This document shows positions 30,995 to 44,628 of a stretch of 64,000 bases of DNA, piece by piece. Position numbers and translations under genes: made by a program. This DNA is from Nitrospira lenta. GTDB taxonomy: Bacteria > Nitrospirota > Nitrospiria > Nitrospirales > Nitrospiraceae. The stretch is taken from assembly GCF_900403705.1 (NCBI RefSeq), contig NZ_OUNR01000012.1:62001-126000 (forward strand), read 5' to 3'. Under the pieces are notes generated by a model. It was not told the DNA's origin, did not search any database, and worked only from the letters and a program-made list of their open reading frames with translations. The number at the start of each line of letters is the position of its first letter. Position 1 is the first letter of the stretch.

Positions 30995-31387
30995 ATGGGA
31001 ACGATGACCGGCTTTGACCTTCTGCTCGAGTATCTCACCAGGTATTTCCCGATACTCCTATTTATATTTATTGCCCTGGCCTTTGGGGTGGTCACGCTGG
31101 TGCTCAGTTATTTTGTGCAACCGAAATATCCTGAGCCGGAAAAGCTCTCGACCTATGAGTGCGGATCTGAACCATTTTCAGACGCTCGCATGCCGTTTCC
31201 CGTCCGATATTACGTCTTTGCGATGCTGTTCGTGATCTTCGACATTGAAGTGATCTTTCTCTATCCCTGGGCCATCGTGTTCGAAAAGCTCGGGATCATT
31301 GGGCTCGTTGAAATGCTGTTGTTTATTGCGTTGTTCCTGGTCGCATATGTCTACGCCTGGCGAAAGGGAGCACTTGAATGGGACTGA
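30995..31387 (+). CDS. nuoA: NADH-quinone oxidoreductase subunit A
   Basis: A 130-aa membrane subunit with three helices. The conserved loop [40 protein letters not shown] is the family signature (read here in parts: [14 protein letters not shown]). NuoA helps form the quinone-site/membrane-arm junction. First gene of the cluster; its end overlaps nuoB by 10 bases. ATG at 30995 or 31004 are both possible. Confidence 0.95.
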
Positions 31388-31905
31388 TCCAACTGGGGCG
31401 TCCAGACAAAGACGGCTCTCCTGACGTCATTACCACGACCGTCGAAAAAGCCGTGAACTGGGCGCGTAAAGGCTCGCTCTGGCCCATGACCTTCGGCCTG
31501 GCCTGCTGCGCCATTGAAATGATTGCGGCCGTGTCGTCCCGCTATGACATGGATCGTTACGGAGCCGGTGTCTTCCGTGCCTCTCCAAGACAGTCCGACT
31601 TGATGATTGTTGCCGGAACCGTCTGTCGGCGCATGGCTCCCGTGATCCGAAAGATTTACGATCAAATGCCGGAGCCTAAGTATGTTATCGCCATGGGATC
31701 TTGCGCTACCTCCGGAAATATCTATGACAGCTATAGCGTCGTCCAAGGTGTCGACCGGTTCGTCCCCGTCGATATCTATGTCCCTGGCTGCCCTCCCACG
31801 CCGGAGGCACTGTTTGACGGCATCCTGAAGCTGCAAGAGCGCATTATGCAAAAGCGGGTGTTTGTCACGCAACCAGACCAGGTCAAAGCCAGCTTGAAAG
31901 TCTAG
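31378..31905 (+). CDS. nuoB: NADH-quinone oxidoreductase subunit B
   Basis: A 175-aa subunit carrying the terminal 4Fe-4S cluster N2. Its four ligands are present: the adjacent pair Cys43-Cys44 (LACCAIEM), Cys109 (GSCATSG) and Cys138 (PGCPPTPE). N2 passes electrons to quinone at the NuoB/NuoD interface. It overlaps nuoA by 10 bases and is followed by nuoC after 10 bases. Confidence 0.97.
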
Positions 31906-31915
31906 GAACGGCCCG

Positions 31916-32413
31916 ATGCATCAACTAGCTCAACGAGTTCAAGACACCTTTCCTGTGGGCTTTGTGTCATCCACCGAATGGCGCGGCGATATCTCTGTGA
32001 CCGTCACGCGAGAAAAGGTTCACGAAATCGCTCAGTTTCTGCACGACGATCCAGGGATGGACTTCGACTACATCGTTCATGTCAGTTCTGTAGACTGGCC
32101 CGATGACGAAGAACGTTTTGAAGTGGTCTGGGAGTTCTATGCGATCCGAAAGCGCCAGCGCATCAGACTCAAGACCCGGGTCCCGGAATCTGATTGCATC
32201 GTCGACTCTCTGACCGACATCTGGAAGGGCGCCGATTTCATGGAGCGCGAAGTGTACGACATGATGGGGATCCGCTTCCGCAATCATCCGGACCTGCGCC
32301 GCATCCTCATGCCCGACGATTACACTGAAGGCTATCCGCTGCGGAAGGATTTTCCGCTCCGCGGCAAAGGCTGGCGAGACACGTTCGATTTTCTCGACGA
32401 AGTGCCGCGATAG
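31916..32413 (+). CDS. nuoC: NADH-quinone oxidoreductase subunit C
   Basis: A 165-aa 30-kDa-type subunit of the peripheral arm. The signature RExYDMMGIRFxNHPDLRRILMPDDYTEGYPLRKDFPLRG is visible in order (EREVYDMMGI, NHPDLRRILMPDD, YPLRKDFP). It is structural, packing against NuoD. Unlike E. coli, nuoC and nuoD are separate genes, 15 bases apart. Confidence 0.96.
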   Translation: MHQLAQRVQDTFPVGFVSSTEWRGDISVTVTREKVHEIAQFLHDDPGMDFDYIVHVSSVDWPDDEERFEVVWEFYAIRKRQRIRLKTRVPESDCIVDSLTDIWKGADFMEREVYDMMGIRFRNHPDLRRILMPDDYTEGYPLRKDFPLRGKGWRDTFDFLDEVPR

Positions 32414-32428
32414 GAACGAGATTGGCCC

Positions 32429-33673
32429 ATGGCATTTGAAGATCAGAGAACCACCGTCTATAAAGTCGACCCGGAACATCCGGAGAGCGAATCGCTCCCG
32501 ACGCTCCGGACCGAGGAGCTGCTGCTCAACATGGGGCCGCAGCATCCGAGCACCCATGGTGTCCTCAAAGTGATCTTGGAATTAGAAGGGGAACGGCTCG
32601 TCAAATCGACGCCCGTCCTGGGGTTTCTCCACCGCGGTGTCGAGAAGCTCGCCGAGGATGGCACCTATCATCAGTTCATTCCCCATACGGACCGGCTCGA
32701 TTATGTCTGTGCGATGTACAACAATTTCGCCTATTGCCGCGCCGTCGAGAAACTCCTGAACCTCCAGGTCCCCGATCGGGCAGAGTACCTCCGCACGATT
32801 GTCGCGGAAGTGCAGCGTATCATCGGCCATCAGTTCTGGCTGGGAACCCAAGCGCTCGACATCGGCGCCATGACTGTCTTCTTCTACTGTTTCCGTGACC
32901 GGGAAATCCTGTTGGACTGGTTCGATGAACTCTGCGGTGCCCGATTGACCACTAGCTGGTACCGGATCGGCGGAGTCGAACGCGATTTCACACCGTCCCT
33001 ACTCGACAAGCTCAAGAAATTTCTCGACTATTTTCCACCCAAGATCGACGAATACATCGTCTTCCTGGAAACGAATCGTATCTGGGTTGCCCGCACCAAA
33101 GGGGTTGCCGTCGTCTCGGCAGAAGATGCCGTCAGCTTCGGCCTCAGCGGCCCGACCTTGCGGGGATCAGGAGTCGATTACGATCTGCGCAAATACGAGC
33201 CGTATTCGGCTTACCCCAAATGCGAGTTCAGTGTTCCCGTGGGGAAAAACGGCGACACCTATGATCGTTATTGGATCCGGGTCATGGAACTTTACGAGAG
33301 CGTGAAGATCATTCGGCAATGTCTCGAACAGATGCAGGATGGCCCGATCATGGCGGATGTCCCCAGCGTCACCCTGCCACCGAAAGAACGCGTCTTCACC
33401 AATCTCGAAGCCATGATCCAACAGTTCAAACTCTTCTCGCAGGGCTTCAACGCCCCTCCGGGAGAGATCTACTGCGGAACAGAAGCGCACAAGGGTGAAC
33501 TGGGATTCCACATTGTCAGTACGGGCGGAGGGAAACCCTATCGCCTGAAAATCCGCGCCCCTTCCTTCATCCACATGGGCGCATTTGATTATATGTCACG
33601 CGGGTATATGATCGCCGACGCCATTACGCTGTTCGGCACGTACGATATCGTCATGGGCGAATGCGACCGGTAG
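32429..33673 (+). CDS. nuoD: NADH-quinone oxidoreductase subunit D
   Basis: A 414-aa 49-kDa-type subunit that forms the quinone pocket with NuoB. Family landmarks are NMGPQHPSTHGVLK (the loop with the quinone-binding His), GFLHRGVEKLAE, the GARxTTSWYRIGGV segment and the C-terminal GECDR. Length and motifs are normal, so quinone chemistry should be intact. Confidence 0.97.
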   Translation: MAFEDQRTTVYKVDPEHPESESLPTLRTEELLLNMGPQHPSTHGVLKVILELEGERLVKSTPVLGFLHRGVEKLAEDGTYHQFIPHTDRLDYVCAMYNNFAYCRAVEKLLNLQVPDRAEYLRTIVAEVQRIIGHQFWLGTQALDIGAMTVFFYCFRDREILLDWFDELCGARLTTSWYRIGGVERDFTPSLLDKLKKFLDYFPPKIDEYIVFLETNRIWVARTKGVAVVSAEDAVSFGLSGPTLRGSGVDYDLRKYEPYSAYPKCEFSVPVGKNGDTYDRYWIRVMELYESVKIIRQCLEQMQDGPIMADVPSVTLPPKERVFTNLEAMIQQFKLFSQGFNAPPGEIYCGTEAHKGELGFHIVSTGGGKPYRLKIRAPSFIHMGAFDYMSRGYMIADAITLFGTYDIVMGECDR

Positions 33674-33698
33674 CCTGAGAGAGGCAAGGATCCGAACT

Positions 33699-36392
33699 AT
33701 GGGCTTGAAGCCAGCCACCAACCCGGACGTCGAAGCGACAACCATCGAGCTCAGCATCGATGGAAAGGCCGTCTCCGCCAAAGACGGGGTCTCGCTATAC
33801 GACGTCATCTCCAGCACGGGCAAGATCATCCCGGCTATGTGCTATCACTATACCTTCGACCCATTCGGCTCCTGCGGGATGTGTCTCGTCATGCAGGAAG
33901 GGAAGAAAGCCCCGGTTCGCTCTTGCACCGCCAAAGCTACCGCCGGCATGGTAATCCGTACGGAAGGAGAGGATCTCTTCCTTGCGCGAAAGAAAGCCGT
34001 CGAAAAACATCTCTCAGTCCATCCCTTGGATTGTCCGGTCTGTGATGCGGATGGTCACTGCGAACTCCAGGACATGGCGTTTCAGCACGGTGTGACCAAC
34101 CTGGCCAGCGCCAAGCAGAAATTCATTCCGGAAGATACTCGCAGCCTGGTGCTCGACTTCAATATGAATCGCTGCATCGCTTGCGCTGAATGCATCAACG
34201 TCTGCAAAGATGTGCTGATGATCGACGCCCTGCAATTCATGAAAAAGGGCGGCTTCAACCAAGTCGTGGCGAAGGGCGACCTCCCGCTGTCCTGCGAATT
34301 CTGCGGCGACTGTCTCGCCGTGTGCCCCGTCGGCGCGATCACGAACAAATATTCGAAGTACCTCTACAAGCCCTGGCAGATGAAGAAGACCGCCACGACG
34401 TGTAACTATTGCGGTGATGGCTGCCAGCTGTATCTTGAGACGAAAGACTCCGAAGTCATCCGGGTGACCTCTCCCTTGTCCTGGAAAAACAAGTGGGGCG
34501 ATCGCGAGGAAACCGCCAAAGGACACGGCGGACTCTGTGTACGAGGGCGGTTCGGATTCGAGTATCTCGACAGTAAAGCCAGGCTCACTCAGCCACTTGT
34601 GCGCGAGGGGAACCAACTCGTGCCCAAACCCTGGCTCGAAGCAATGCACCAGGTTGTCGACCGTTTCACTGAAGTGAAACAGAAACACGGTGCGGATGCG
34701 ATTGCCGGGTTGATTACCGCCCGTTGCACAAACGAAGAGCTCTATCTGTTCCAAAAGCTCATGCGGACCGTGTTCGGCAGCAACCATCTCGACAGCAGTG
34801 CCCGCTACGGCCATATGAATTTCGTGCATGCCTCTCGCCATGCTCTGGGCTTCGGCCGGACTCCCAATGACTGGGAAGATCTCACTAAAGCCAAGGCCAT
34901 TCTGTTAATCGGCTCCAACATCACCGAAACCAACCCCCTGACCGCTGTCCGGATCAAGGAAGCCATCCGGGTGTACAAAGCACAGGTCGTCGCTCTCGAT
35001 TCGACCATCACGAATCTCGGGAAATTGGCGTCCCATCCGTTCCTCATCAAGCCAGGTACAGAGGGGTGGGTCATCGATGGCCTCGTCAAAGCCACCATCG
35101 ATCAGGATCTCGTCGACGAACAAACCGTCAACAAGCACCCGAAAGCCTACGAAGCATTGAAAGCCGCGTTGGCCGGCCTCTCTCTCGAGCAGATTGCCAC
35201 GTACACCGGAGTCACCGCCGACACCTATCGGGACATCGCCGCTATCCTGGCCGAGGCGCCTCGTTCGATTTTCCTCTGCGCCGAAGGTATCGTACGGCGT
35301 CCTGACGGCTATCAGAACGTCCTCAAGCTAATCGATTTGGCCTGGATCACCGGGAAACTCGGCCAGCTCGGCTGTGGCGTCAACACCGTGACCGAAGAAC
35401 CGAACGAGCAGGGCGCCGTCGACATGGGCGTCGCGCCAGAATTCTTACCGGGTCAGGGCCGATACAGCGATGCGGCGGCACGCGATCGATTCAGTAAGGC
35501 ATGGGAGACCGCGATACCCGCCACCGCAACCGGCGCCAACCTGATGGAAATTTTGAAGCGCTGCAAAAGCGGTCAGATCAAGGCCCTCTACGTTATCGGA
35601 GAAAACCCCTTGGCCACACTCCCGGCTTCGGTTGAAGTCCGCAGCGCGCTCGAACGGCTCGAACTGCTGGTGGTGCAAGATCCCTTCTTAACCGACACCG
35701 GTCGGCAAGCCCATTTCGTCCTGCCTGCCTGCACCTACGCGGAAAAAGAAGGAACGTTTACCAATCTCGAAGGGCGCGTCCTGCGCGTACGCCAGGCCAT
35801 GGATCCCGTGGGGGAAAGCTTGCCCGACTGGCACATTATGACCGCGCTGGCCAATGCCCTGGGAGCGCAGTGGGAATATGAATCGGCCAACGACATTCAA
35901 GCCGAGATCATGAAACTCTTGCCCGGGTACTACAACCTTGGCCAGCCGCGCAAAGTCACACCGGCTCCCGATCAGTATCTGACAAACGGGTATGCCGCAG
36001 AAGTAAAGACTCGCTATCGTGCCGCGGCACCAGTCACCGATTCCAAACGGCCCTTCGCCCTGGCGATGGGACAATTGCTCGCCCATTCAGGCAAGATGTC
36101 GACAGAGGCGCCAGGACTCATCAACATTGCCCCGAACACCGGGAAGCTTCGGATGAACGCAGGCGACATGGAACGATTGGGTCTCCAAGAAGGCACAAAG
36201 GTTCGCGTGACCTCGGAACGGGGTTCGCTCCAGCTGGGTGTGCAGCCTGATATTGCACAGGCGCCGAACACCTGCTTCTTCCCGGAGCATTTCAATGAAC
36301 CCCCGGTCAAAGACTTGATGGCCGTACATGTAGATGCCGTCACCGGCGTGCCGGCCTTTAAGCAAACCTGGGTCAGTATTGAAAAGGCCTAA
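33699..36392 (+). CDS. nuoG: NADH-quinone oxidoreductase subunit G (Fe-S/molybdopterin fold)
   Basis: An 897-aa peripheral-arm subunit. The N-terminus has a 2Fe-2S ferredoxin domain (CYHY, SCGMC, RSC), the His-Cys3 cluster motif (HPLDCPVCDADGHC) and two 4Fe-4S motifs (CIACAECINVC and CEFCGDCLAVC). A further CNYCGDGC...C motif marks the extra cluster N7, followed by a molybdopterin-oxidoreductase-like domain to the end. All wires are intact. In canonical complex I it receives electrons from NuoF/NuoE, but neither gene is here; it is followed directly by nuoI. Confidence 0.95.
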   Translation: MGLKPATNPDVEATTIELSIDGKAVSAKDGVSLYDVISSTGKIIPAMCYHYTFDPFGSCGMCLVMQEGKKAPVRSCTAKATAGMVIRTEGEDLFLARKKAVEKHLSVHPLDCPVCDADGHCELQDMAFQHGVTNLASAKQKFIPEDTRSLVLDFNMNRCIACAECINVCKDVLMIDALQFMKKGGFNQVVAKGDLPLSCEFCGDCLAVCPVGAITNKYSKYLYKPWQMKKTATTCNYCGDGCQLYLETKDSEVIRVTSPLSWKNKWGDREETAKGHGGLCVRGRFGFEYLDSKARLTQPLVREGNQLVPKPWLEAMHQVVDRFTEVKQKHGADAIAGLITARCTNEELYLFQKLMRTVFGSNHLDSSARYGHMNFVHASRHALGFGRTPNDWEDLTKAKAILLIGSNITETNPLTAVRIKEAIRVYKAQVVALDSTITNLGKLASHPFLIKPGTEGWVIDGLVKATIDQDLVDEQTVNKHPKAYEALKAALAGLSLEQIATYTGVTADTYRDIAAILAEAPRSIFLCAEGIVRRPDGYQNVLKLIDLAWITGKLGQLGCGVNTVTEEPNEQGAVDMGVAPEFLPGQGRYSDAAARDRFSKAWETAIPATATGANLMEILKRCKSGQIKALYVIGENPLATLPASVEVRSALERLELLVVQDPFLTDTGRQAHFVLPACTYAEKEGTFTNLEGRVLRVRQAMDPVGESLPDWHIMTALANALGAQWEYESANDIQAEIMKLLPGYYNLGQPRKVTPAPDQYLTNGYAAEVKTRYRAAAPVTDSKRPFALAMGQLLAHSGKMSTEAPGLINIAPNTGKLRMNAGDMERLGLQEGTKVRVTSERGSLQLGVQPDIAQAPNTCFFPEHFNEPPVKDLMAVHVDAVTGVPAFKQTWVSIEKA

Positions 36393-36431
36393 GAACGTGA
36401 CAGATCGTCGTATCACGGGCGGGAGCCGACC

Positions 36432-37019
36432 ATGAGCGTTGCCACACTGACAAAAAAAATTCTGCATGCAGCCCTGTTCTATGAGATTTGGGATGCCATG
36501 AAGGTGACGTTTCGCCATATGTTCCATCGCCCGATCACATTTCAGTACCCGCGCGAACAGCGGACCCTTCCCGACACTCATCGCGGCGCATTATCGCTGC
36601 TGCGCTACGACGACGGCCGCGAACGCTGCGTGGGATGCGATCTTTGTGAGGCCGCCTGCCCATCCCGTTGCATCAAGGTGATCAGCGCGGAAGACCCGAC
36701 CCGCCCCTTGCAGCGGTACGCGACTGAGTTTTACATCGACATCACGAAGTGCGTGTTCTGCGGCTACTGTGTGGAAGCCTGCCCCGTCAATGCACTGGCC
36801 ATGACCAAGATGTACGAATTTTCCACGCATGATAAGCGTACCCTCCTCTTCGACAAGAAGCGGCTCTACGACATTGGTGAGCGTCATCTCAGTGACGCGA
36901 AAAAATATCTTTACGCCCATAACCAGGAGAAAAATGTCGAGGAGAGTCGTGAGTACCGATACTATTTCCCCCAGTCGGTCCTCAAAGCCACACAATCGAC
37001 TCCCAAACATTTGAGCTGA
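36432..37019 (+). CDS. nuoI: NADH-quinone oxidoreductase subunit I
   Basis: A 195-aa 8Fe ferredoxin-like subunit with two 4Fe-4S motifs (CVGCDLCEAACPSRC and CVFCGYCVEACP), clusters N6a and N6b, linking NuoG to NuoB. An N-terminal amphipathic stretch places it on the membrane surface. A GGGAG site precedes the ATG. In standard clusters nuoH lies between nuoG and nuoI; here only 39 bases separate them. Confidence 0.96.
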   Translation: MSVATLTKKILHAALFYEIWDAMKVTFRHMFHRPITFQYPREQRTLPDTHRGALSLLRYDDGRERCVGCDLCEAACPSRCIKVISAEDPTRPLQRYATEFYIDITKCVFCGYCVEACPVNALAMTKMYEFSTHDKRTLLFDKKRLYDIGERHLSDAKKYLYAHNQEKNVEESREYRYYFPQSVLKATQSTPKHLS

Positions 37020-37028
37020 GACACCCCG

Positions 37029-37550
37029 ATGATTGCTGTCTTCTTTTCATATTTTGCCTTTATGAGTATTGCGGCCGCGGTCATGACGGTCGCGCTCAAG
37101 AATCCCGTCCACTGCGGACTGGCCTTGCTCGCGCTCCTGCTGCATGTCTCGGGATTTTTCGTCCTGCTCAATGCGGAGTTTCTCTGGGCCGTCCAAGTCA
37201 TCGTGTATGCCGGAGCCATCCTCGTGCTCTATCTCTTCGTTCTGATGCTCTTGAATCTCAAAACGGACGAACGGTATTTTCACTCCACCTATCTGTATTT
37301 TTTGACCCCGGCCGTTCTGGGATCCCTCTACGTGATATATCTCTTGCTCCATTCGCCTTTTGCCGGCGCCAAAGGCGGTGCACCGGCTGTTGCCGTCTTA
37401 CAAGACGGGGACACGGCGGCGATCGGGATCAAGATGTTCAGCGACTATCTCCTGCAATTTGAAATCGTGGGAGTCTTCTTGTTGGGTGCCATCATCGGAG
37501 CCATCGTGCTGGCGAAAACACCCAAGCCGCTCAACTTGAGGAAAGACTGA
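37029..37550 (+). CDS. nuoJ: NADH-quinone oxidoreductase subunit J
   Basis: A 173-aa membrane subunit with five helices. FVLLNAEFLWAVQVIVYAGAILVLYLFVLMLLNL is the conserved TM3 region including the pi-bulge Tyr-Ala-Gly-Ala that gates coupling. It starts 9 bases after nuoI and ends 3 bases before nuoK. Confidence 0.95.
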   Translation: MIAVFFSYFAFMSIAAAVMTVALKNPVHCGLALLALLLHVSGFFVLLNAEFLWAVQVIVYAGAILVLYLFVLMLLNLKTDERYFHSTYLYFLTPAVLGSLYVIYLLLHSPFAGAKGGAPAVAVLQDGDTAAIGIKMFSDYLLQFEIVGVFLLGAIIGAIVLAKTPKPLNLRKD

Positions 37551-37553
37551 CGC

Positions 37554-37856
37554 ATGCTTCCGTTATCGGCCTATGTGGCAGTCAGCGCCATCCTCTTCGT
37601 CATCGGACTGCTCGGCGTCCTCATCAGACGTAATTTCATTATCGTCTTGATGTCCGTCGAGATTATGCTCAACGCCGCCAATATCAATCTGGTCGCCTTC
37701 TCTTACTATCTTGAATCCATGGCCGGGCAATTGGTGGCCCTGTTCATCATTGCGATCGCCGCAGGAGAAGCGGCCATCGGCTTAGCCATTATCATTGTGG
37801 TGTTCCGCGGGAAACTCTCAACCAACGTCGACGAAATGAACCTCTTGAAGTGGTAA
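37554..37856 (+). CDS. nuoK: NADH-quinone oxidoreductase subunit K
   Basis: A 100-aa, three-helix membrane subunit of normal length. The two membrane glutamates needed for proton transfer, Glu36 (MSVEIMLNA) and Glu72 (AAGEAAIGL), are both present. It ends one base before the GTG of nuoL. Confidence 0.96.
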   Translation: MLPLSAYVAVSAILFVIGLLGVLIRRNFIIVLMSVEIMLNAANINLVAFSYYLESMAGQLVALFIIAIAAGEAAIGLAIIIVVFRGKLSTNVDEMNLLKW

Positions 37857-37857
37857 C

Positions 37858-39834
37858 GTGTTCGATTTAACTGATCTGCTCATTAAACTGATTCCGGTCT
37901 TCCCCTTGCTGGCCGCCATTGCCAACGGTCTCCTTGGCAGCCGGTATTCTCATGAGGTCGCTCACCGCCTCGCCTGGGGATCCGTCGGCCTCTCGTTCCT
38001 CTGTGTCATCGGCGTCTTCGCGGATGTCCTGCGCACCGGCGCCACTCACGAAGTGATCGCCTATCAATGGATCTTCGGCGGCGACCTCACCATCAATCTG
38101 GCCTACCTGGTAGACCCCCTGACCTGCGTCTGGCTCTTGGTCGTCACCGGCGTCGGATTCCTGATTCACGTCTATTCCGTCGGCTACATGCACGGTGAAG
38201 CGGGCTTCACCCGGTTCTTCACCTATATGAACCTGTTCATGCTCTCGATGTTGTTGCTCGTCATGGGCAACAATTACGCGGTCTTGTTCATCGGGTGGGA
38301 AGGAGTCGGACTCTGCTCCTATCTGCTCATCGGCTACTACTACGATAAAGTCTCTGCCGCCAAAGCTGCCACCAAAGCGTTCGTCGTCAACCGCATCGGC
38401 GACGCCGGGTTCCTATTGGCCATCTTCCTGGTCTTTATTAACTTCAAGACACTCGACTACACCAAGGTGTTTGCCCAGCTGGGTCAACTCTCGCCCGACA
38501 TGGCTACCGCCATCGCCCTCTGCCTGTTAGTCGGCGCGGTCGGAAAATCCGCTCAGCTCCCTCTGTACACCTGGTTACCGGATGCCATGGAAGGCCCCAC
38601 GCCGGTCAGCGCGCTGATCCATGCCGCCACCATGGTGACGGCCGGCGTCTATATGATCGTACGGAACCATGCCATTTTCGATCTCTCTCCCATTGCCATG
38701 CAGACCGTCGCCATCGTCGGAGGCTGCACCGCCTTATTTGCGGCAACCATCGGTCTGGTGCAAACCGACATTAAACGGGTGCTCGCGTACTCGACCGTCA
38801 GTCAACTCGGCTACATGTTTCTCGCGTGCGGAATCGGCGCTTATACCGCCGCCGTCTTCCACGTCATGACCCATGCCTTCTTCAAAGCCCTCTTGTTCTT
38901 ATCAGCCGGCTCCGTGATCCATGCCCTGTCAGGGGAGCAGGACATTCGGAAAATGGGCGGCTTGAGCAAAAAGATACCCTGGACCTATCGACTCTTCCTC
39001 ATCGGCACCATTGCCATCGCGGGCATCCCCCCCTTGGCCGGGTTCTGGAGCAAAGACGAGATCATGGGCCACGCCTTCGTGAATCACCAATTCCTCTTCT
39101 ATGGACTGGCGGCGATCGGTGCGTTCCTCACGTCGTTTTATATGTTCAGACTGACGTACCTGACCTTTTACGGTCCTTCTCGCATGGACCATCACACAGA
39201 AGAGCATGTCCATGAATCGCCCATGGTCATGGTCGGGCCTTTGATGGCGCTCGGAGTCTTATCAGTATTCGGCGGACTCATCTTGGGCTTCCCACCGGAA
39301 CATGGTTGGCTCCATGGATTCCTCGCCCCCGTTGCCGGAGTCGCCGGCGGACATGAAACCAGCGTGGCCACCACCCTGCTCCTGATGGGAACAGCGACCG
39401 GCATTGCCGTCGTCGGATGGGGTCTGGCGCATTTTCTCTATAGTTTAAGTCCGTCAACTGCCGACACCTGGGCCGCCAAATTCTCGGGCATCTACACAAC
39501 GCTCTTGAACAAATACTACGTCGATGAGCTCTACGACTTCTTGTTCGTCGAGCCGACCAAGCGCCTGGGTGAATTCCTGGATTGGTTTGATCGAACCGTG
39601 ATCGATGGCCTCGTGAACGGTGTCGCACAGATGGCGGAATGGGGGTCAGCCGGATCAACCTGGCTTGAAAAGTACGTCGTCTATGCCGGCCTCAACGTGA
39701 TCGGGCTCAGCAATCATCTGGCTGCTCGCCAAGGACGCAAGCTCCAAAGCGGCATGGTCCACCACTACGCGGCGATCATTATCGCCGGCATTTTCTTGCT
39801 GGCGTTAGTTGTACAGCTGATCCTGCAAAAGTAA
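37858..39834 (+). CDS. nuoL: NADH-quinone oxidoreductase subunit L
   Basis: A 658-aa antiporter-like distal pump subunit with a GTG start. The TM5 Glu (FIGWEGVGLCSYLLIG), the TM7 Lys (VGKSAQLPLYTWLPDAMEGPTPVSALIHAATMV, read as GKSAQLP then HTAATMV-type TM8) and the C-terminal lateral helix with its anchoring TM are present. It is longer than E. coli NuoL (613 aa), most of the surplus lying after TM14, which fits a lateral helix long enough to span an additional pump module. Confidence 0.95.
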   Translation: MFDLTDLLIKLIPVFPLLAAIANGLLGSRYSHEVAHRLAWGSVGLSFLCVIGVFADVLRTGATHEVIAYQWIFGGDLTINLAYLVDPLTCVWLLVVTGVGFLIHVYSVGYMHGEAGFTRFFTYMNLFMLSMLLLVMGNNYAVLFIGWEGVGLCSYLLIGYYYDKVSAAKAATKAFVVNRIGDAGFLLAIFLVFINFKTLDYTKVFAQLGQLSPDMATAIALCLLVGAVGKSAQLPLYTWLPDAMEGPTPVSALIHAATMVTAGVYMIVRNHAIFDLSPIAMQTVAIVGGCTALFAATIGLVQTDIKRVLAYSTVSQLGYMFLACGIGAYTAAVFHVMTHAFFKALLFLSAGSVIHALSGEQDIRKMGGLSKKIPWTYRLFLIGTIAIAGIPPLAGFWSKDEIMGHAFVNHQFLFYGLAAIGAFLTSFYMFRLTYLTFYGPSRMDHHTEEHVHESPMVMVGPLMALGVLSVFGGLILGFPPEHGWLHGFLAPVAGVAGGHETSVATTLLLMGTATGIAVVGWGLAHFLYSLSPSTADTWAAKFSGIYTTLLNKYYVDELYDFLFVEPTKRLGEFLDWFDRTVIDGLVNGVAQMAEWGSAGSTWLEKYVVYAGLNVIGLSNHLAARQGRKLQSGMVHHYAAIIIAGIFLLALVVQLILQK

Positions 39835-39870
39835 GTCACGTCGAGGGAACGTCGGAGTCGCGCAACGATT

Positions 39871-41430
39871 ATGTTAGAAGAACTCGCAGCTGGTTTTCCC
39901 ATCTTGTCCTGTCTCCTCTTCCTCCCTTTTGTCGGAGCCGCCGTGCTCTGGCTCGTCGATGATGAGGATATGGTTCGGACTTCCGCCCTGACGATCAGTC
40001 TGGTCGAACTCGCCTTGGCGATCTTCGTCCTCCTTCGCTTCGTCCCTGATTCCGCCGCGATGCAATTCGCCGAACATGTCCGTTGGATTCCCGCCTTGGG
40101 CATCAGCTACCACCTGGCAGTCGATGGCATCAGCGTGCTCTTTGTCGGGCTGACGGCTTTCCTGACCGTTCTGGTGATCGTGTATTCCTGGGACACCATT
40201 CGTCACCAGGTGAAACTGTACATGATGTGCCTCCTGGCCCTCGAAACGACGACCATGGGCGTCTTCGTCTCACTGGACCTCATTCTCTTCTTCGTCTTCT
40301 GGGAATTGATGCTCATCCCCAGTTATTTCCTGATCAAGCTCTGGGGTGGCGGGGCAGAACGGCATCACGCCGCGTTGAAGTATGTGCTTTATACACTCTT
40401 AGGTAGCGTCTTTATGCTCGTGGGCATTGCGCTGCTGGATTTGAACTTTCATCATTGGGCAGTCCTTCGTCATACCGATCAGCTCTACTCCTTTGACCTC
40501 CTTGATCTGTTGACGGTCCCTATTCCAGTCGATCAGCAAATTCTCATTTTCTGGCTCATGTTCATGGGCTTTGCCTTCAAAGCCCCGGTGTTTCCATTCC
40601 ACACGTGGCTGCCTGACGCCTTGCTCGAAGGACCGATCGGCATGGCCGTGGTCCTTGCCGGACTCAAGCTTGGAACCTTCGGTTTTATTCGCTTCAGCAT
40701 TCCCTTGCTGCCGGAAGCATCTAAGAGCCACACCGTAGTGACCGTGATCATGTGCCTGGGCATTGCCGCGATTACGTATGGCGCCGTCATGGCCCTGATC
40801 CAGCCAGATTTCCGCAGACTTCTGGCCTTCAGCAGTATCAGTCACTTGGGCTTTGTGATGATGGGGCTCTTTGCGCTGAACTATCAGGGACTCCAGGGTA
40901 GCCTCCTGACGATGATTAATCTTGGATTCAGTACGGCAGGTCTCTTCTTTATCGCCGGGTTCCTCTATTCGAGACAGCAAACTACCCAGCTGTCGGCATT
41001 CGGCGGGTTAGCGCAACAGGTCCCGCTCCTCGCTTCGTTCTTCTTACTGATCGGACTGGCCTCCATCGGCCTACCCGGCACCAATGGTTTTGTCGGAGAG
41101 TTTTTGATTCTCCTCGGTACGTTTAAAGCCAATTGGGTGTTCGGCGCCCTCGCCGTCACCGGAGTCGTGTTCGGCGCCGCCTATTTTCTGTGGTACTACG
41201 AACGCGCGATCCTGGGCCCTCTCGGAAAAGCCGTGAAGAATACGATGGTCGATTTACAGTTACGGGAAATGGTCATTGCCGTGTCGCTGGCCGTCATGAT
41301 TCTCTGGATCGGGCTCTATCCATCGCCGTTCCTCCACATCATAAACGGTTCGATCCAAGCCCTGGTAGACCGCCTCGATCATGGAACCGTCGCCGTCTTG
41401 ACTGAACCCGTTCAACGATTGGATCGCTAA
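39871..41430 (+). CDS. nuoM: NADH-quinone oxidoreductase subunit M, first copy
   Basis: A 519-aa antiporter-like pump subunit with about 14 helices. All key charged residues are seen: TM5 Glu (FFVFWELMLIPSYF), TM7 Lys (GFAFKAPVFPFHTWLPDA), TM8 Lys (LAGLKLGTFGFIRF) and TM12 Glu (GLPGTNGFVGEFLIL). It is a conventional NuoM. It lies 36 bases after nuoL and 5 bases before a second nuoM. Confidence 0.95.
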   Translation: MLEELAAGFPILSCLLFLPFVGAAVLWLVDDEDMVRTSALTISLVELALAIFVLLRFVPDSAAMQFAEHVRWIPALGISYHLAVDGISVLFVGLTAFLTVLVIVYSWDTIRHQVKLYMMCLLALETTTMGVFVSLDLILFFVFWELMLIPSYFLIKLWGGGAERHHAALKYVLYTLLGSVFMLVGIALLDLNFHHWAVLRHTDQLYSFDLLDLLTVPIPVDQQILIFWLMFMGFAFKAPVFPFHTWLPDALLEGPIGMAVVLAGLKLGTFGFIRFSIPLLPEASKSHTVVTVIMCLGIAAITYGAVMALIQPDFRRLLAFSSISHLGFVMMGLFALNYQGLQGSLLTMINLGFSTAGLFFIAGFLYSRQQTTQLSAFGGLAQQVPLLASFFLLIGLASIGLPGTNGFVGEFLILLGTFKANWVFGALAVTGVVFGAAYFLWYYERAILGPLGKAVKNTMVDLQLREMVIAVSLAVMILWIGLYPSPFLHIINGSIQALVDRLDHGTVAVLTEPVQRLDR

Positions 41431-41435
41431 GACCC

Positions 41436-43112
41436 ATGGGTGATTACGCCTTACTCTACATTCTCTTCGCGCCGTTCTTCGGCGCCTTCGCGTTGATCTT
41501 CATCTCCAACCGCCAGGCGCTGCTCGTGCGCGGGATTGCCGCCGGATCAGCCTTTATTTCACTCATTGCGTCTCTGTACCTCTTCTATGCGTACGATCCG
41601 GTCAGAGGTGGATTCCAATTCATCCAACGATTTGATTGGTCACATCAACTGGGCATCTCGCTGTACCTTGGCGTCGACGGCATCGGCACACCCCTGGTCC
41701 TGGCCTCGTCGATCTTGTTGTTCGCGGGTATCTTCGTCTCCTGGCACATCAAAGATCGCGCCAAAGAGTTTTACATCTGGATTCTGATCCTCGCGGCAGC
41801 CACCATCGGCGTCTTTATGTCGCTGGACCTCTTCTTTCTCTTCTTCTTCTACGAAATGTCGGTCATTCCGATGTACCTCCTGCTCGGGATGTGGGGCAGC
41901 CATACCAAGAAGTATTTGGAAATGACCGATCCGGAAGGCGTCAAACAACGCGACTCCGTCGGCTTCATCTTCAATTTCGGCTCGAACAGCAAAGAGTATG
42001 CGGCCATGAAGCTGGTGCTGTTCCTCTCCGCTTTTGCCGTCGCCGCCCTCATGGGCATTCTCCTGATCTACAAATATTCAGGCTTGAACACGTTTGACAT
42101 TCTCGTGCTTCGCGAACATGCCAATCTCATGAACATTCCCGTGCTGGGCACGACACTGGACAAAATCATCTGGGTCCTCATTTTCTTCGGATTCGCTTCT
42201 ATCGCGCCCCTTTGGCCGCTGCATTCCTGGTCGCCCGTGGGACACGCCGCCGCGCCCGCTGCCACCAGCATGTTGCACGCCGGCGTCCTCATGAAGCTCG
42301 GACATTTCTCAATTATCCGCGTGGCCTTCGAGATTCTCCCGGAAACAACGCGGGAGCTCATGCCCATGGCAGCCGTGCTCTGCATGTTCAGTATCGTCTA
42401 CGGCGGGTTCGTCGCGTACTACGCGAAAGACACCAAGTATGTCATCGGCTATTCCAGCTCCAGCCACATGGGTTATGTGTTTCTTGGCATGGCCGCCCTG
42501 GATTACATCAGCCTCAGCGGCGCGGTGATCTACATGTTCGCCCACGCGATGGCCACGGGCATGCTCTTCTCCATGGCCGGTTGGGTCTACGATCAAACTC
42601 ACACGCGCGATATTCCCTCACTCGGGGGGCTGTCCAATAAGATGCCCTTTATCTCCGCCTGCTTCGTGGTGGGATGCATGGCCTCCATCGGCATGCCAGG
42701 CACGATCAATTTCATCGCGGAAGTGATGATCATCGTGGGCAGCTGGAACAAGTATCCGCTACAGGTCATTGTCGCCGTGCTCGGAATCGTGTTGACGATG
42801 GCCTATCTCTTTAAGATGATGCGAAGCCTGTTCTATGGCCCGATGGACCAGAAATACAGTCACTCGCATGATGCGGTGGCGTTCGTGGACCGTCTCCCGC
42901 TTTTAATCATGATTTCCGTCAGTGTGGGATTCGGACTCTTCCCCATGCACCTGTACAACGTGGTTCGCTCAGGGGTCGATCCGCTCATTGCCAGAATTAC
43001 TCACGTCGTGCCCGTGGCCGAACTGCAGGCTCCGGAGACATCGGCAACCTCACTGCCTGAACAGTTGGCGGCCCGTGGCGCACAGCTACCTGACTCGCGC
43101 GTGGCTCAATAG
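41436..43112 (+). CDS. nuoM: NADH-quinone oxidoreductase subunit M, second divergent copy
   Basis: A 558-aa second NuoM-like pump subunit. The TM5 Glu (FFFYEMSVIPMYLLLGMWG), the TM8 Lys (LMKLGHFSIIRV) and the TM12 Glu (FIAEVMIIVGSW) are kept. The TM7 lysine is not: the motif normally read FAxKxPxxPxHxW is FASIAPLWPLHSW, with Ile256 at the Lys position, and the next PDAH is PVGH. A loop of about 25 extra residues follows TM5 (EMTDPEGVKQRDSVGF). Two-NuoM complexes are described in Nitrospira and proposed to pump extra protons; the lysine loss is what I see here. Confidence 0.93.
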   Translation: MGDYALLYILFAPFFGAFALIFISNRQALLVRGIAAGSAFISLIASLYLFYAYDPVRGGFQFIQRFDWSHQLGISLYLGVDGIGTPLVLASSILLFAGIFVSWHIKDRAKEFYIWILILAAATIGVFMSLDLFFLFFFYEMSVIPMYLLLGMWGSHTKKYLEMTDPEGVKQRDSVGFIFNFGSNSKEYAAMKLVLFLSAFAVAALMGILLIYKYSGLNTFDILVLREHANLMNIPVLGTTLDKIIWVLIFFGFASIAPLWPLHSWSPVGHAAAPAATSMLHAGVLMKLGHFSIIRVAFEILPETTRELMPMAAVLCMFSIVYGGFVAYYAKDTKYVIGYSSSSHMGYVFLGMAALDYISLSGAVIYMFAHAMATGMLFSMAGWVYDQTHTRDIPSLGGLSNKMPFISACFVVGCMASIGMPGTINFIAEVMIIVGSWNKYPLQVIVAVLGIVLTMAYLFKMMRSLFYGPMDQKYSHSHDAVAFVDRLPLLIMISVSVGFGLFPMHLYNVVRSGVDPLIARITHVVPVAELQAPETSATSLPEQLAARGAQLPDSRVAQ

Positions 43113-43128
43113 GGTACCAGTCGACACT

Positions 43129-44628
43129 ATGAACTTTGAACTCAATATGACGATAGCCGATCTCCTCCTGCTGTTGCCGGAGATCTTCCTGATCCTGTGG
43201 CTTTGCCTGGTCTTGATTGTCGACTTTTCCTTTCCCCGGCTCCCGAAGGAACAAATCGGCTACTTGAGCGTCGTGGGGCTCGTCGTCACCCTGGGCTGCC
43301 TCGCCTGGTTCGACTTGACGCATATCTCCGGGGCCCTCTTCGGCAACATGTTTGTGCTCGATCGCATGGCCATCTTCTTTAAGATGTTTATCCTTGGCGC
43401 GAGCATTCTCGTCATCCTTGCCTCCATTGAATACGTCAACCGCTTTGCCTTTTTTCGTGGGGAGTACTATTTCCTCATCGTCATGTCCGCCCTCGGCATG
43501 ATGTTTATGGCCTCCGCCAACGATTTACTGTCTCTCTTCGTCACGCTGGAGTTTTCCACCTTCGGATTCTATGTGCTCGTGGCCTACCTGCGCGAAGACC
43601 TCGCCTCGAATGAAGCTGGTCTCAAGTTCTTTATTCTTGGTGTTTTTGCCGCCGGTCTCCTGGCCTACGGAATCAGCCTGGTCTACGGGGAAACCGGCAA
43701 GTTGGTCTTTTCAGATATGGCCTCGGCACCGGCCACGCCAGGCTTGATCGTCGGCTTCCTGTTGATCTTCGCGGCTCTCGGTTTCAAAATCGGGGCCGTT
43801 CCATTCCATACCTGGGTTCCCGACACCTATCATGGCGCGCCCACGCCCGTAACAGCATTCCTCTCCATCGCGCCGAAGGGCGCCGCCATCGCCATCCTGC
43901 TCCGGTTGTTCTTCGTGGCCCTGTTCACCTTTAAGCCGATGTGGGTGCTCTTGCTCGCGGCCGTCTCCGTCCTGTCGATGACCTATGCGAACATCGTGGC
44001 TATAGCCCAAACGAATATTAAGCGCCTCCTGGCCTATTCAGGCATTGCCCAAATCGGAAACGTCCTCATCGGGATGGCAGCGGGCACCAAGATGGGCAAC
44101 GATGCGATCCTGTTTTATCTGCTGACCTATTTGTTTGCGAACATCGGCGCCTTCGCGGTCGTGATCGCCATGAGTCAGGCCATCGGCAGTGAAGAAATCA
44201 ACGATTACAGCGGCCTCAATCGCCGATCGCCGTTTTTGGCCTTCTCCATGCTGCTCTTTCTCCTGTCACTGGCCGGCGTGCCACCCTTAGCCGGGTTTAT
44301 CGGCAAGATCTATATCTTTGTAGCCGCCATCAAAGAAGGGCTCTATACCCTCATTACCGTCGGGCTCGTGAATATCGTCATTTCCATGTACTACTACCTG
44401 ATTGTCGTAAAGAAGATGTACATCGCCGAGCCGATTGACCCGTCACCCATTCGGATTTCTGGTCCGATGAAGGCCGTGGTGTATGTCGGCCTTGCCGGAA
44501 CGCTGTTGATCGGAATCTATCCTCAACCCTTCATCGACTGGGTGGTCTCTGCCACGATGATGTTCTCCCATCTCCCACCGACACCAGCCGCGACCGCGCT
44601 CCCTCCGATTCCCCCTCTCGGGGGCTAA
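43129..44628 (+). CDS. nuoN: NADH-quinone oxidoreductase subunit N
   Basis: A 499-aa antiporter-like pump subunit proximal to the J/K part of the membrane arm. TM5 Glu (FVTLEFSTFGFYVLVAY), TM7 Lys (LGFKIGAVPFHTWVPDTYHGAPTPVTAFLS, in the FKIGAVPFH part) and TM8 Lys (IAPKGAAIA) are present. The ATG at 43129 lies 16 bases after nuoM2. It is the last gene of the cluster. Confidence 0.95.
   Translation: MNFELNMTIADLLLLLPEIFLILWLCLVLIVDFSFPRLPKEQIGYLSVVGLVVTLGCLAWFDLTHISGALFGNMFVLDRMAIFFKMFILGASILVILASIEYVNRFAFFRGEYYFLIVMSALGMMFMASANDLLSLFVTLEFSTFGFYVLVAYLREDLASNEAGLKFFILGVFAAGLLAYGISLVYGETGKLVFSDMASAPATPGLIVGFLLIFAALGFKIGAVPFHTWVPDTYHGAPTPVTAFLSIAPKGAAIAILLRLFFVALFTFKPMWVLLLAAVSVLSMTYANIVAIAQTNIKRLLAYSGIAQIGNVLIGMAAGTKMGNDAILFYLLTYLFANIGAFAVVIAMSQAIGSEEINDYSGLNRRSPFLAFSMLLFLLSLAGVPPLAGFIGKIYIFVAAIKEGLYTLITVGLVNIVISMYYYLIVVKKMYIAEPIDPSPIRISGPMKAVVYVGLAGTLLIGIYPQPFIDWVVSATMMFSHLPPTPAATALPPIPPLGG

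What the first reader, a model, noticed from the sequence alone, without database searches (positions are those of the whole stretch)
41436..43112. Second NuoM lacks the TM7 pumping lysine
In every standard antiporter-like subunit the TM7 motif has Lys before the Pro (FAxKxPxxPxHxW). The first NuoM keeps it (FAFKAPVFPFHTW). The second reads FASIAPLWPLHSW with Ile256 there, and the following PDAH becomes PVGH, while the TM5 Glu, TM8 Lys and TM12 Glu are kept. A loop of about 25 residues is also inserted. This suggests a pump module with a changed proton pathway, or a structural spacer, so an added module may not mean one extra pumped proton.
Basis: partly seen in the sequence, partly recalled or inferred. 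Interest (0 to 1): 0.75.

Follow-up and report, generated by a model that had tools for sequence, protein, structure and literature searches.

The report
NuoM clade without its switch lysine
The extra pump module of a Nitrospira respiratory complex lacks a lysine thought essential for pumping, belongs to a wider family that also lacks it, and carries a histidine nearby that may do the job instead, so an added module need not mean one more pumped proton.

Summary
NuoM2 (41436-43112) of this Nitrospira 2M-type complex I has Ile256 at the NuoM TM7 Lys position (E. coli K234); TM5 Glu140, TM8 Lys287 and TM12 Glu429 are kept and TM5-TM6 carries an insert. The loss is not private: of 124 distinct M2-type sequences 123 have Ile and one Leu, while 162 of 162 M1-type sequences keep Lys. 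Nor is it confined to second copies: the only NuoM of three Bacteroidales clusters and of one Nitrospirota 3-module cluster has Leu there. These join M2 in a group of 25 against 41 Lys-bearing NuoM, support 100/100. In that group a TM8 His at the register of NuoL H254 is present in 25 of 25, and absent in 41 of 41. M2 is the most conserved of the four antiporter-like subunits, which speaks against an inert spacer. Best reading: a working module whose Glu switch partner moved from TM7 Lys to TM8 His; pairing and pumping are inferred. No cluster read here has more than three Lys-bearing modules. The founding 2M paper could not be read.

The parts
41436..43112 (+). nuoM2, second NuoM of the 2M complex I (558 aa), TM7-Lys-less type
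   Evidence: (TIGR01972 404.2 bits, cut-off 263.8)
42201..42203 (+). codon 256, ATC (Ile) at the NuoM TM7 Lys position (E. coli K234)
42276..42278 (+). codon 281, CAC (His) on TM8, 25 residues after position 256, register of NuoL H254; proposed substitute partner of Glu140
41853..41855 (+). codon 140, TM5 Glu (kept)
42294..42296 (+). codon 287, TM8 Lys (kept)
42720..42722 (+). codon 429, TM12 Glu (kept)
41895..41990 (+). TM5-TM6 insert region, residues 154-185, low model confidence; seen in M2 of multi-module complexes, absent in the G226 contig-16 and Bacteroidales NuoM
39871..41430 (+). nuoM1, keeps TM7 Lys237; TM8 Lys266 lies 29, not 31, residues after it
37858..39834 (+). nuoL; 26-residue insert in the lateral-helix region at residues 592-617 (39631-39708)
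43129..44628 (+). nuoN (start 43129 or 43147); keeps TM7 Lys214 and TM12 Lys387
30995..37856 (+). nuoA, B, C, D, G, I, J, K of the same cluster (no nuoE, nuoF or nuoH seen in it)
   Evidence: gene names by my reading of the ORFs, not by a family search

Best explanation
NuoM2 is a functional antiporter-like module that belongs to a NuoM clade in which the TM5 Glu / TM7 Lys switch has been rebuilt. The TM7 Lys is replaced by Ile or Leu, and a His on TM8 (His281), at the place where NuoL carries H254, is the proposed new partner of Glu140. In the 2M complex the module probably sits between NuoN and NuoM1, receives the charge signal through Glu140/His281, and still moves a proton along Lys287, His344, His370 and Glu429. 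A His would make a weaker, more pH-dependent switch than a Lys, so the cost or direction of pumping by this module may differ. Shown by computation: the residues, the clade, the exact co-occurrence and the strong conservation. Inferred: the Glu-His pairing, the position in the arm, and the pumping.
For: 25 Lys-less NuoM against 41 Lys-bearing NuoM are one side of a branch, support 99/95 with NuoN in the tree and 100/100 without. TM7 Lys goes with TM8 Leu in 41 of 41, TM7 Ile/Leu with TM8 His in 25 of 25. Among nine columns whose titratable content differs between the groups, only 256 (Lys lost) and 281 (His gained) are complete in both groups; fixed non-titratable switches lie beside them (139 Tyr/Trp next to Glu140, 266, 269, 279) and at 197. 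Glu140, His281, Lys287 and Glu429 are invariant among 31 aligned members, two of them Bacteroidales. NuoL helix VIII, which holds H254, is described as adjacent to E144 of helix V (PMC4938563, passages). M2 is the most conserved antiporter-like subunit: mean identity 0.845 against 0.783 (M1), 0.790 (L) and 0.789 (N) over 74 loci. The AF2 model (mean pLDDT 81.9) superposes on NuoM/NdhD chains at Z above 50. A Lys-less NuoM is the only NuoM of the cluster in L171 and in three Bacteroidales clusters.
Against: All 25 Lys-less NuoM hang on one branch, so the Lys/His swap counts once and may be coincidence of descent; the Bacteroidales rows sit on a long branch (1.61) and the tree tool warned of long-branch joins. 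NuoL and MrpD1-type subunits have both the TM7 Lys and the TM8 His, and MrpD2 (Asn) and HycC (Leu) lack the Lys without the His, so the His is neither specific nor generally required. No coordinates were at hand to measure a Glu140-His281 distance. Seven M2 sequences have Asp for His370. I found no measured pumping for a Lys-less NuoM; B. fragilis NUO showed no NADH activity (PMC7002350, passages). The TM7 Lys of Paracoccus ND4 (K232) is reported essential for catalysis (PMC9802314, passages).
Confidence: 0.45

Rival explanations
1. M2 is a switchless relay or spacer: it passes the charge wave and fills the lengthened arm but does not pump a proton of its own, so 2M enzymes move the same number of protons as canonical ones.
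For: No cluster read has more than three TM7-Lys modules: 78 loci read L:K M1:K M2:I N:K, four read K,N,K,I,K and three read K,N,K,K (loci, some from the same species), and two rhizobial plasmid clusters read K,N,K,K. Mutation of the TM7 Lys in ordinary NuoM causes loss of function (PMC3046159, PMC9802314, passages).
Against: A Lys-less NuoM is the only NuoM of the Bacteroidales and L171 3-module clusters, which then have only two Lys modules. M2 keeps Glu140, Lys287, His344 and Glu429 and is the most conserved subunit.
Confidence: 0.25
2. The positive charge is supplied in trans: NuoN Lys387 (TM12) pairs directly with M2 Glu140 at the N-M2 interface, so the own Lys became redundant.
For: Gene order L-M1-M2-N puts M2 next to N if order mirrors assembly. 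NuoN TM12 Lys is kept in 156 of 156 sequences that cover it, also beside the Lys-less NuoM of L171 and Bacteroidales.
Against: The same NuoN Lys stands beside ordinary NuoM that keep their own Lys, so it does not explain the loss. It could not serve for MrpD2 if that subunit follows NuoM, whose TM12 residue is Glu. Subunit order was not tested.
Confidence: 0.12
3. The loss is a neutral or lineage trait: the TM7 Lys is dispensable in several natural antiporter-like subunits and its absence changes little.
For: At least three subunit types lack it: the NuoM clade, MrpD2 (Asn) and HycC (Leu). None of 18 HycC substitutions affected the FHL complex in one study (PMC5061711, passage).
Against: Ile is kept through silent codon changes, neighbours of the site changed with it, and the Lys is invariant in 162 of 162 M1-type and 160 of 160 NuoN-type sequences. 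Another passage reports 45% less hydrogen for HycC E391A and D354A (PMC9474812).
Confidence: 0.15

Closest known systems
2M complex I (Chadwick et al. 2018, ISME J 12:2668; known here only through citing papers PMC6606698, PMC9040806, PMC7117926, PMC12342949)
   Same: Two NuoM, lengthened NuoL lateral helix, separate nuoC and nuoD, cluster without nuoE/F/H as reported for N. moscoviensis.
   Different: The citing passages read link the extra NuoM with more pumped protons and do not mention the missing Lys; the original paper was not available.
Bacteroidales NuoM (B. finegoldii, Prevotella nigrescens, Phocaeicola massiliensis; plasmid records)
   Same: Same group in the tree, TM7 Leu, TM8 His and Lys, TM5 and TM12 Glu, WSPDGH in place of WLPDAH.
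   Different: Only NuoM of a 3-module cluster, no TM5-TM6 insert, 34-38% identity to M2.
E. coli HycC of formate hydrogenlyase
   Same: Leu208 at the TM7 Lys position with TM5 Glu and TM8 Lys kept (PMC5061711, PMC9474812 passages).
   Different: Only antiporter-like subunit of its complex, C-terminal ND3-like extension, the pair lies at the membrane-exposed end, no TM8 His at that register.
MrpD2 of green-type complex I (rhizobia, Nitrospirota, Manganitrophaceae-like)
   Same: A module of a four- or five-module complex without the TM7 Lys.
   Different: Asn instead of Ile, no TM8 His at that register, TM12 Lys; bears the lateral helix according to PMC9040806 (passage).
NuoL / MrpA
   Same: TM8 His at the same register; MrpD1-type subunits and MrpA (PMC7419157, passage) carry His plus TM8 Lys as M2 does.
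   Different: TM7 Lys kept, TM12 Lys, lateral helix in NuoL; M2 matches the NuoM profile.

Membership tests
NuoM (NDH-1 subunit M) | Score above the curated cut-off of TIGR01972 | tested here: met
   404.2 bits, cut-off 263.8
NuoM (NDH-1 subunit M) | Antiporter-like fold | tested here: met
   AF2 model, Z 53.3, rmsd 1.6, 490 aligned to 8e9g_M
NuoM (NDH-1 subunit M) | TM5 Glu, TM8 Lys, TM12 Glu | tested here: met
   Glu140, Lys287, Glu429
NuoM (NDH-1 subunit M) | TM7 Lys (usual; I do not hold it to be defining, because NuoM annotated as such and alone in their cluster lack it) | tested here: not met
   Ile256; Bacteroidales NuoM Leu
2M complex I | Two NuoM genes in one nuo cluster | tested here: met
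   39871-41430 and 41436-43112
2M complex I | Lengthened NuoL lateral helix | tested here: met
   26-residue insert at NuoL 592-617, absent in the canonical NuoL of the same genome, E. coli, Prevotella, L171 and L179, present in L155
2M complex I | One extra proton pumped per cycle | not testable with these tools
   Needs biochemistry; a hypothesis in the citing papers read
HycC-type subunit | TM7 Lys replaced by an aliphatic residue with TM5 Glu kept | tested here: met
   Ile256/Glu140 against Leu/Glu in HycC
HycC-type subunit | Part of a [NiFe] hydrogenase complex with ND3-like extension | tested here: not met
   nuo cluster around it; model has no long helix after 504-522
NuoL/MrpA | TM8 His at +25 from the TM7 site | tested here: met
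   His281
NuoL/MrpA | TM12 Lys and C-terminal lateral helix | tested here: not met
   Glu429; 558 aa, last long predicted helix 504-522

The most novel reading that the evidence does not exclude
Complex I tolerates at most three Glu-Lys switches however many modules it has. Extra modules are recruited from, or turned into, Lys-less types (Ile in NuoM2, Asn in MrpD2), so four- and five-module enzymes are three-switch engines with added relay modules, and the extra modules change force or reversibility rather than the count of pumped protons.
Probability: 0.18. Interest if true: 0.85.

Novelty: new variant of a known kind. Interest (0 to 1): 0.6.

Why it matters
The TM5 Glu / TM7 Lys pair is treated as the switch of the proton-pumping modules of complex I, and its loss by mutation is reported to abolish function in E. 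coli and Paracoccus. A natural clade of NuoM without it, with one exact candidate substitution, makes the switch model directly testable by a two-residue swap. It also bears on the proposal that 2M and Manganitrophaceae complexes move five or six protons, which enters energy budgets of nitrite- and manganese-oxidising bacteria.

Tried and rejected
Nearby lysine filling the site: rejected. The nearest basic residue upstream on TM7, Lys243, is 13 residues away and not conserved in the deep alignment; in Manganitrophaceae-like M2 an extra Lys (position 286) stands on TM8 beside Lys287, not at 256.

Sequencing error or pseudogene: rejected by 123 of 124 sequences with Ile and silent codon changes.

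M2 as a copy of M1 that lost its Lys: not supported by the trees, where M2 joins the L171 and Bacteroidales NuoM, not M1. The tool warned of long branches in the first tree, so it was rebuilt without NuoN; for the second tree only the clade test was printed.

A wider family of the G226 contig-16 NuoM within the phylum: none seen. In the listed part the next matches are 37-48% identical; the six fetched from near the top (L198-L203) keep the Lys.

Second-copy NuoM of Chloroflexi and other 2M lineages could not be reached, so the claim holds only for Nitrospirota plus the named Bacteroidales. The original 2M paper is not held. No paper listed holds both '2M complex' and 'lysine'; 25 papers matched at least three of the five terms and 15 were listed.

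Rows dropped: the conservation test used 74 loci with all four subunits at over 85% coverage and over 45% identity, and left out pairs with NuoL identity over 99.5%. L187 has broken reading frames and was not counted. L072 and L093 showed L, M2 and N but no M1 match and were not followed; loci with only part of a cluster are listed and not used in the count of modules.

Full report
What was checked. The ORF at 41436-43112 encodes a 558-residue NuoM-type protein. It lies in a cluster that I read as nuoA-B-C-D-G-I-J-K-L-M1-M2-N (L, M1, M2 and N confirmed by family search, the others by eye). The window is from a Nitrospira genome: the nearest named records are Nitrospira MAGs at 96-97% identity over NuoM2. 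Residue 256 is Ile at the position of E. coli NuoM K234; Glu140, Lys287 and Glu429 are the kept TM5, TM8 and TM12 residues. The genome also has an ordinary complex I with Lys in L, M and N (L170). The cluster fits the 2M complex I described in citing papers (PMC6606698, PMC9040806, PMC7117926, PMC12342949; passages only), and its NuoL has the expected 26-residue insert in the lateral-helix region.

How general the loss is. In the first 118 loci, 113 M2 orthologs were found and 113 have Ile256. Among all loci held there were 124 distinct sequences whose best match is M2: 123 Ile, 1 Leu. In that set TM5 Glu is kept in 122 of 122 that cover it, TM8 His281 in 124 of 124, TM8 Lys287 in 124 of 124 and TM12 Glu in 122 of 122 that cover it. 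Controls from the same loci: M1-type 162 of 162 Lys, NuoN-type 160 of 160 Lys, NuoL-type 105 Lys, 10 Asn and 5 not covered out of 120. The ten Asn are MrpD2-type subunits. M2 orthologs occur through the window's class in the phylum search of 395 genomes, but G181, G228, G300 and G381 of that class, and G007, G017, G038 and G403 of the window's own order, showed only matches at the level of ordinary NuoM, and the match list was cut. The M2 members read, including those of five-module clusters that I call Manganitrophaceae-like after PMC9040806, all lack the Lys.

Where the Lys-less type comes from. The single Leu sequence is the only NuoM of a 3-module cluster on another contig of genome G226 (L171). 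The plasmid search for M2 relatives listed a Bacteroides NuoM first. Three Bacteroidales clusters, each with one NuoM, have Leu at the TM7 site and His plus Lys on TM8. In a tree of 67 rows the 21 M2, the G226 NuoM and the three Bacteroidales NuoM form one group of 25 (support 99/95); without the long NuoN row the split against 41 Lys-bearing NuoM has 100/100. So M2 does not look like a copy of M1 that lost its Lys; it belongs to a broader Lys-less NuoM clade. The Bacteroidales rows are on a long branch, so a false join is not fully excluded. The TM5-TM6 insert is a separate feature: it is absent in the G226 contig-16 and Bacteroidales members.

The candidate substitute. Across the 66 NuoM rows, Lys at 256 goes with Leu at 281 in 41 of 41, and Ile or Leu at 256 goes with His at 281 in 25 of 25. 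A scan of all columns (titratable in at least 90% of one group and at most 20% of the other) gave nine: 256 and 281, complete in both groups, and 268, 335, 387, 460, 464, 484 and 486, each incomplete in at least one group; 268 and 335 lie in TM7b and at the start of TM10 (by my count of helices) and may matter too. Non-titratable switches fixed in at least 92% of both groups are 139 (Tyr for Trp, beside Glu140), 197, 266, 269 and 279. Position 281 is 25 residues after the TM7 site, the spacing of K229 to H254 in E. coli NuoL. NuoL helix VIII is described as adjacent to the conserved TM5 Glu (PMC4938563, passage), and Mrp work places this His in the TM8 pi-bulge (PMC7419157, passage). From this I infer that Glu140 and His281 form the switch pair. 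The swap is one event on the tree, so this is not independent evidence many times over, and NuoL and MrpD1 have both residues.

Spacer or module. M2 is the most conserved of the four antiporter-like subunits over 74 loci: mean identity 0.845 against 0.783 (M1), 0.790 (L) and 0.789 (N); M2 exceeds M1 in 2563 and N in 2630 of 2698 pairs. Ile256 is kept through silent changes. The predicted model (mean pLDDT 81.9, pTM 0.85) has TM5 at 132-153, TM7a at 240-254 followed by a break, and TM8 at 275-300, with the insert 154-185 at low confidence. It superposes on NuoM-type chains at Z above 50. This argues for a module under selection. It does not show that it pumps.

The count of switches. Reading clusters as a whole: 78 loci L:K M1:K M2:I N:K; four loci K,N,K,I,K; three loci K,N,K,K; four ordinary loci K,K,K (loci, some from the same species); two rhizobial plasmid clusters K,N,K,K. 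Thus no cluster read has more than three Lys-bearing modules, whether it has three, four or five modules. Bacteroidales and L171 have two of three, and a haloarchaeal Mrp-like cluster has two of three. E. coli Hyf has three of three and HycC none of one. Only two origins of extra modules underlie this (M2 and MrpD2), so it is a lead, not a law.

Published background. Mutating the TM7 Lys is reported to cause loss of function in E. coli NuoM, and the Lys is reported essential for catalysis in Paracoccus ND4 (PMC3046159 and PMC9802314, passages); the functional ND4 variants in Paracoccus still pump four protons. HycC is the printed precedent for a missing Lys with the Glu kept (PMC5061711, PMC9474812, passages). 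B. fragilis NUO had no measurable NADH activity and lacks nuoEFG (PMC7002350, passages), so function of a Lys-less sole NuoM is unproven. I saw no held paper that mentions the loss in 2M complexes (listings, and the passages), but the original 2M paper could not be read.

Verdict. The most likely mechanism is a rebuilt switch with His281 in place of the TM7 Lys in a working module (0.45). A switchless relay (0.25), a neutral trait (0.15) and a Lys in trans from NuoN (0.12) remain open.

Noticed in passing
window 39871-41430 (NuoM1), Lys266 at 40666-40668: NuoM1 is unusual too: two residues are missing in TM8 just before its Lys (Lys at +29 instead of +31 from the TM7 Lys) in 139 of 162 distinct M1-type sequences, and in the ones aligned the TM11 His and the PDAH His are lost with it. 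Manganitrophaceae-like M1 and ordinary NuoM keep the usual form.
   Followed up: partly
L171:3646-5262 (genome G226, contig 16): A genome with a five-module cluster carries a further, 3-module complex I whose only NuoM is the Lys-less type without the insert; no close relative in the listed matches of 395 genomes of the phylum.
   Followed up: partly
L145, L146, L147, L174 and L183, L175, L182, L185, L186: The MrpD2-type subunit of green-type and five-module complexes has Asn at the TM7 Lys position.
   Followed up: partly
L145, L146, L147, L174 M2 proteins: Manganitrophaceae-like M2 have Asp for the TM11 His, Tyr for the PDAH His and a second Lys next to TM8 Lys287.
   Followed up: no
window 30995-44628: The cluster holds no nuoH, nuoE or nuoF that I could see, so the quinone-site subunit and any NADH module must come from elsewhere or be replaced.
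   Followed up: no
L168 (own genome C12:180000-190000) and L169 (C5:1-9000): NuoL-like proteins of about 590-600 aa, found by the Proton_antipo_M search, keep the TM7 Lys but appear to lack the TM5 Glu and the TM12 Lys or Glu.
   Followed up: no
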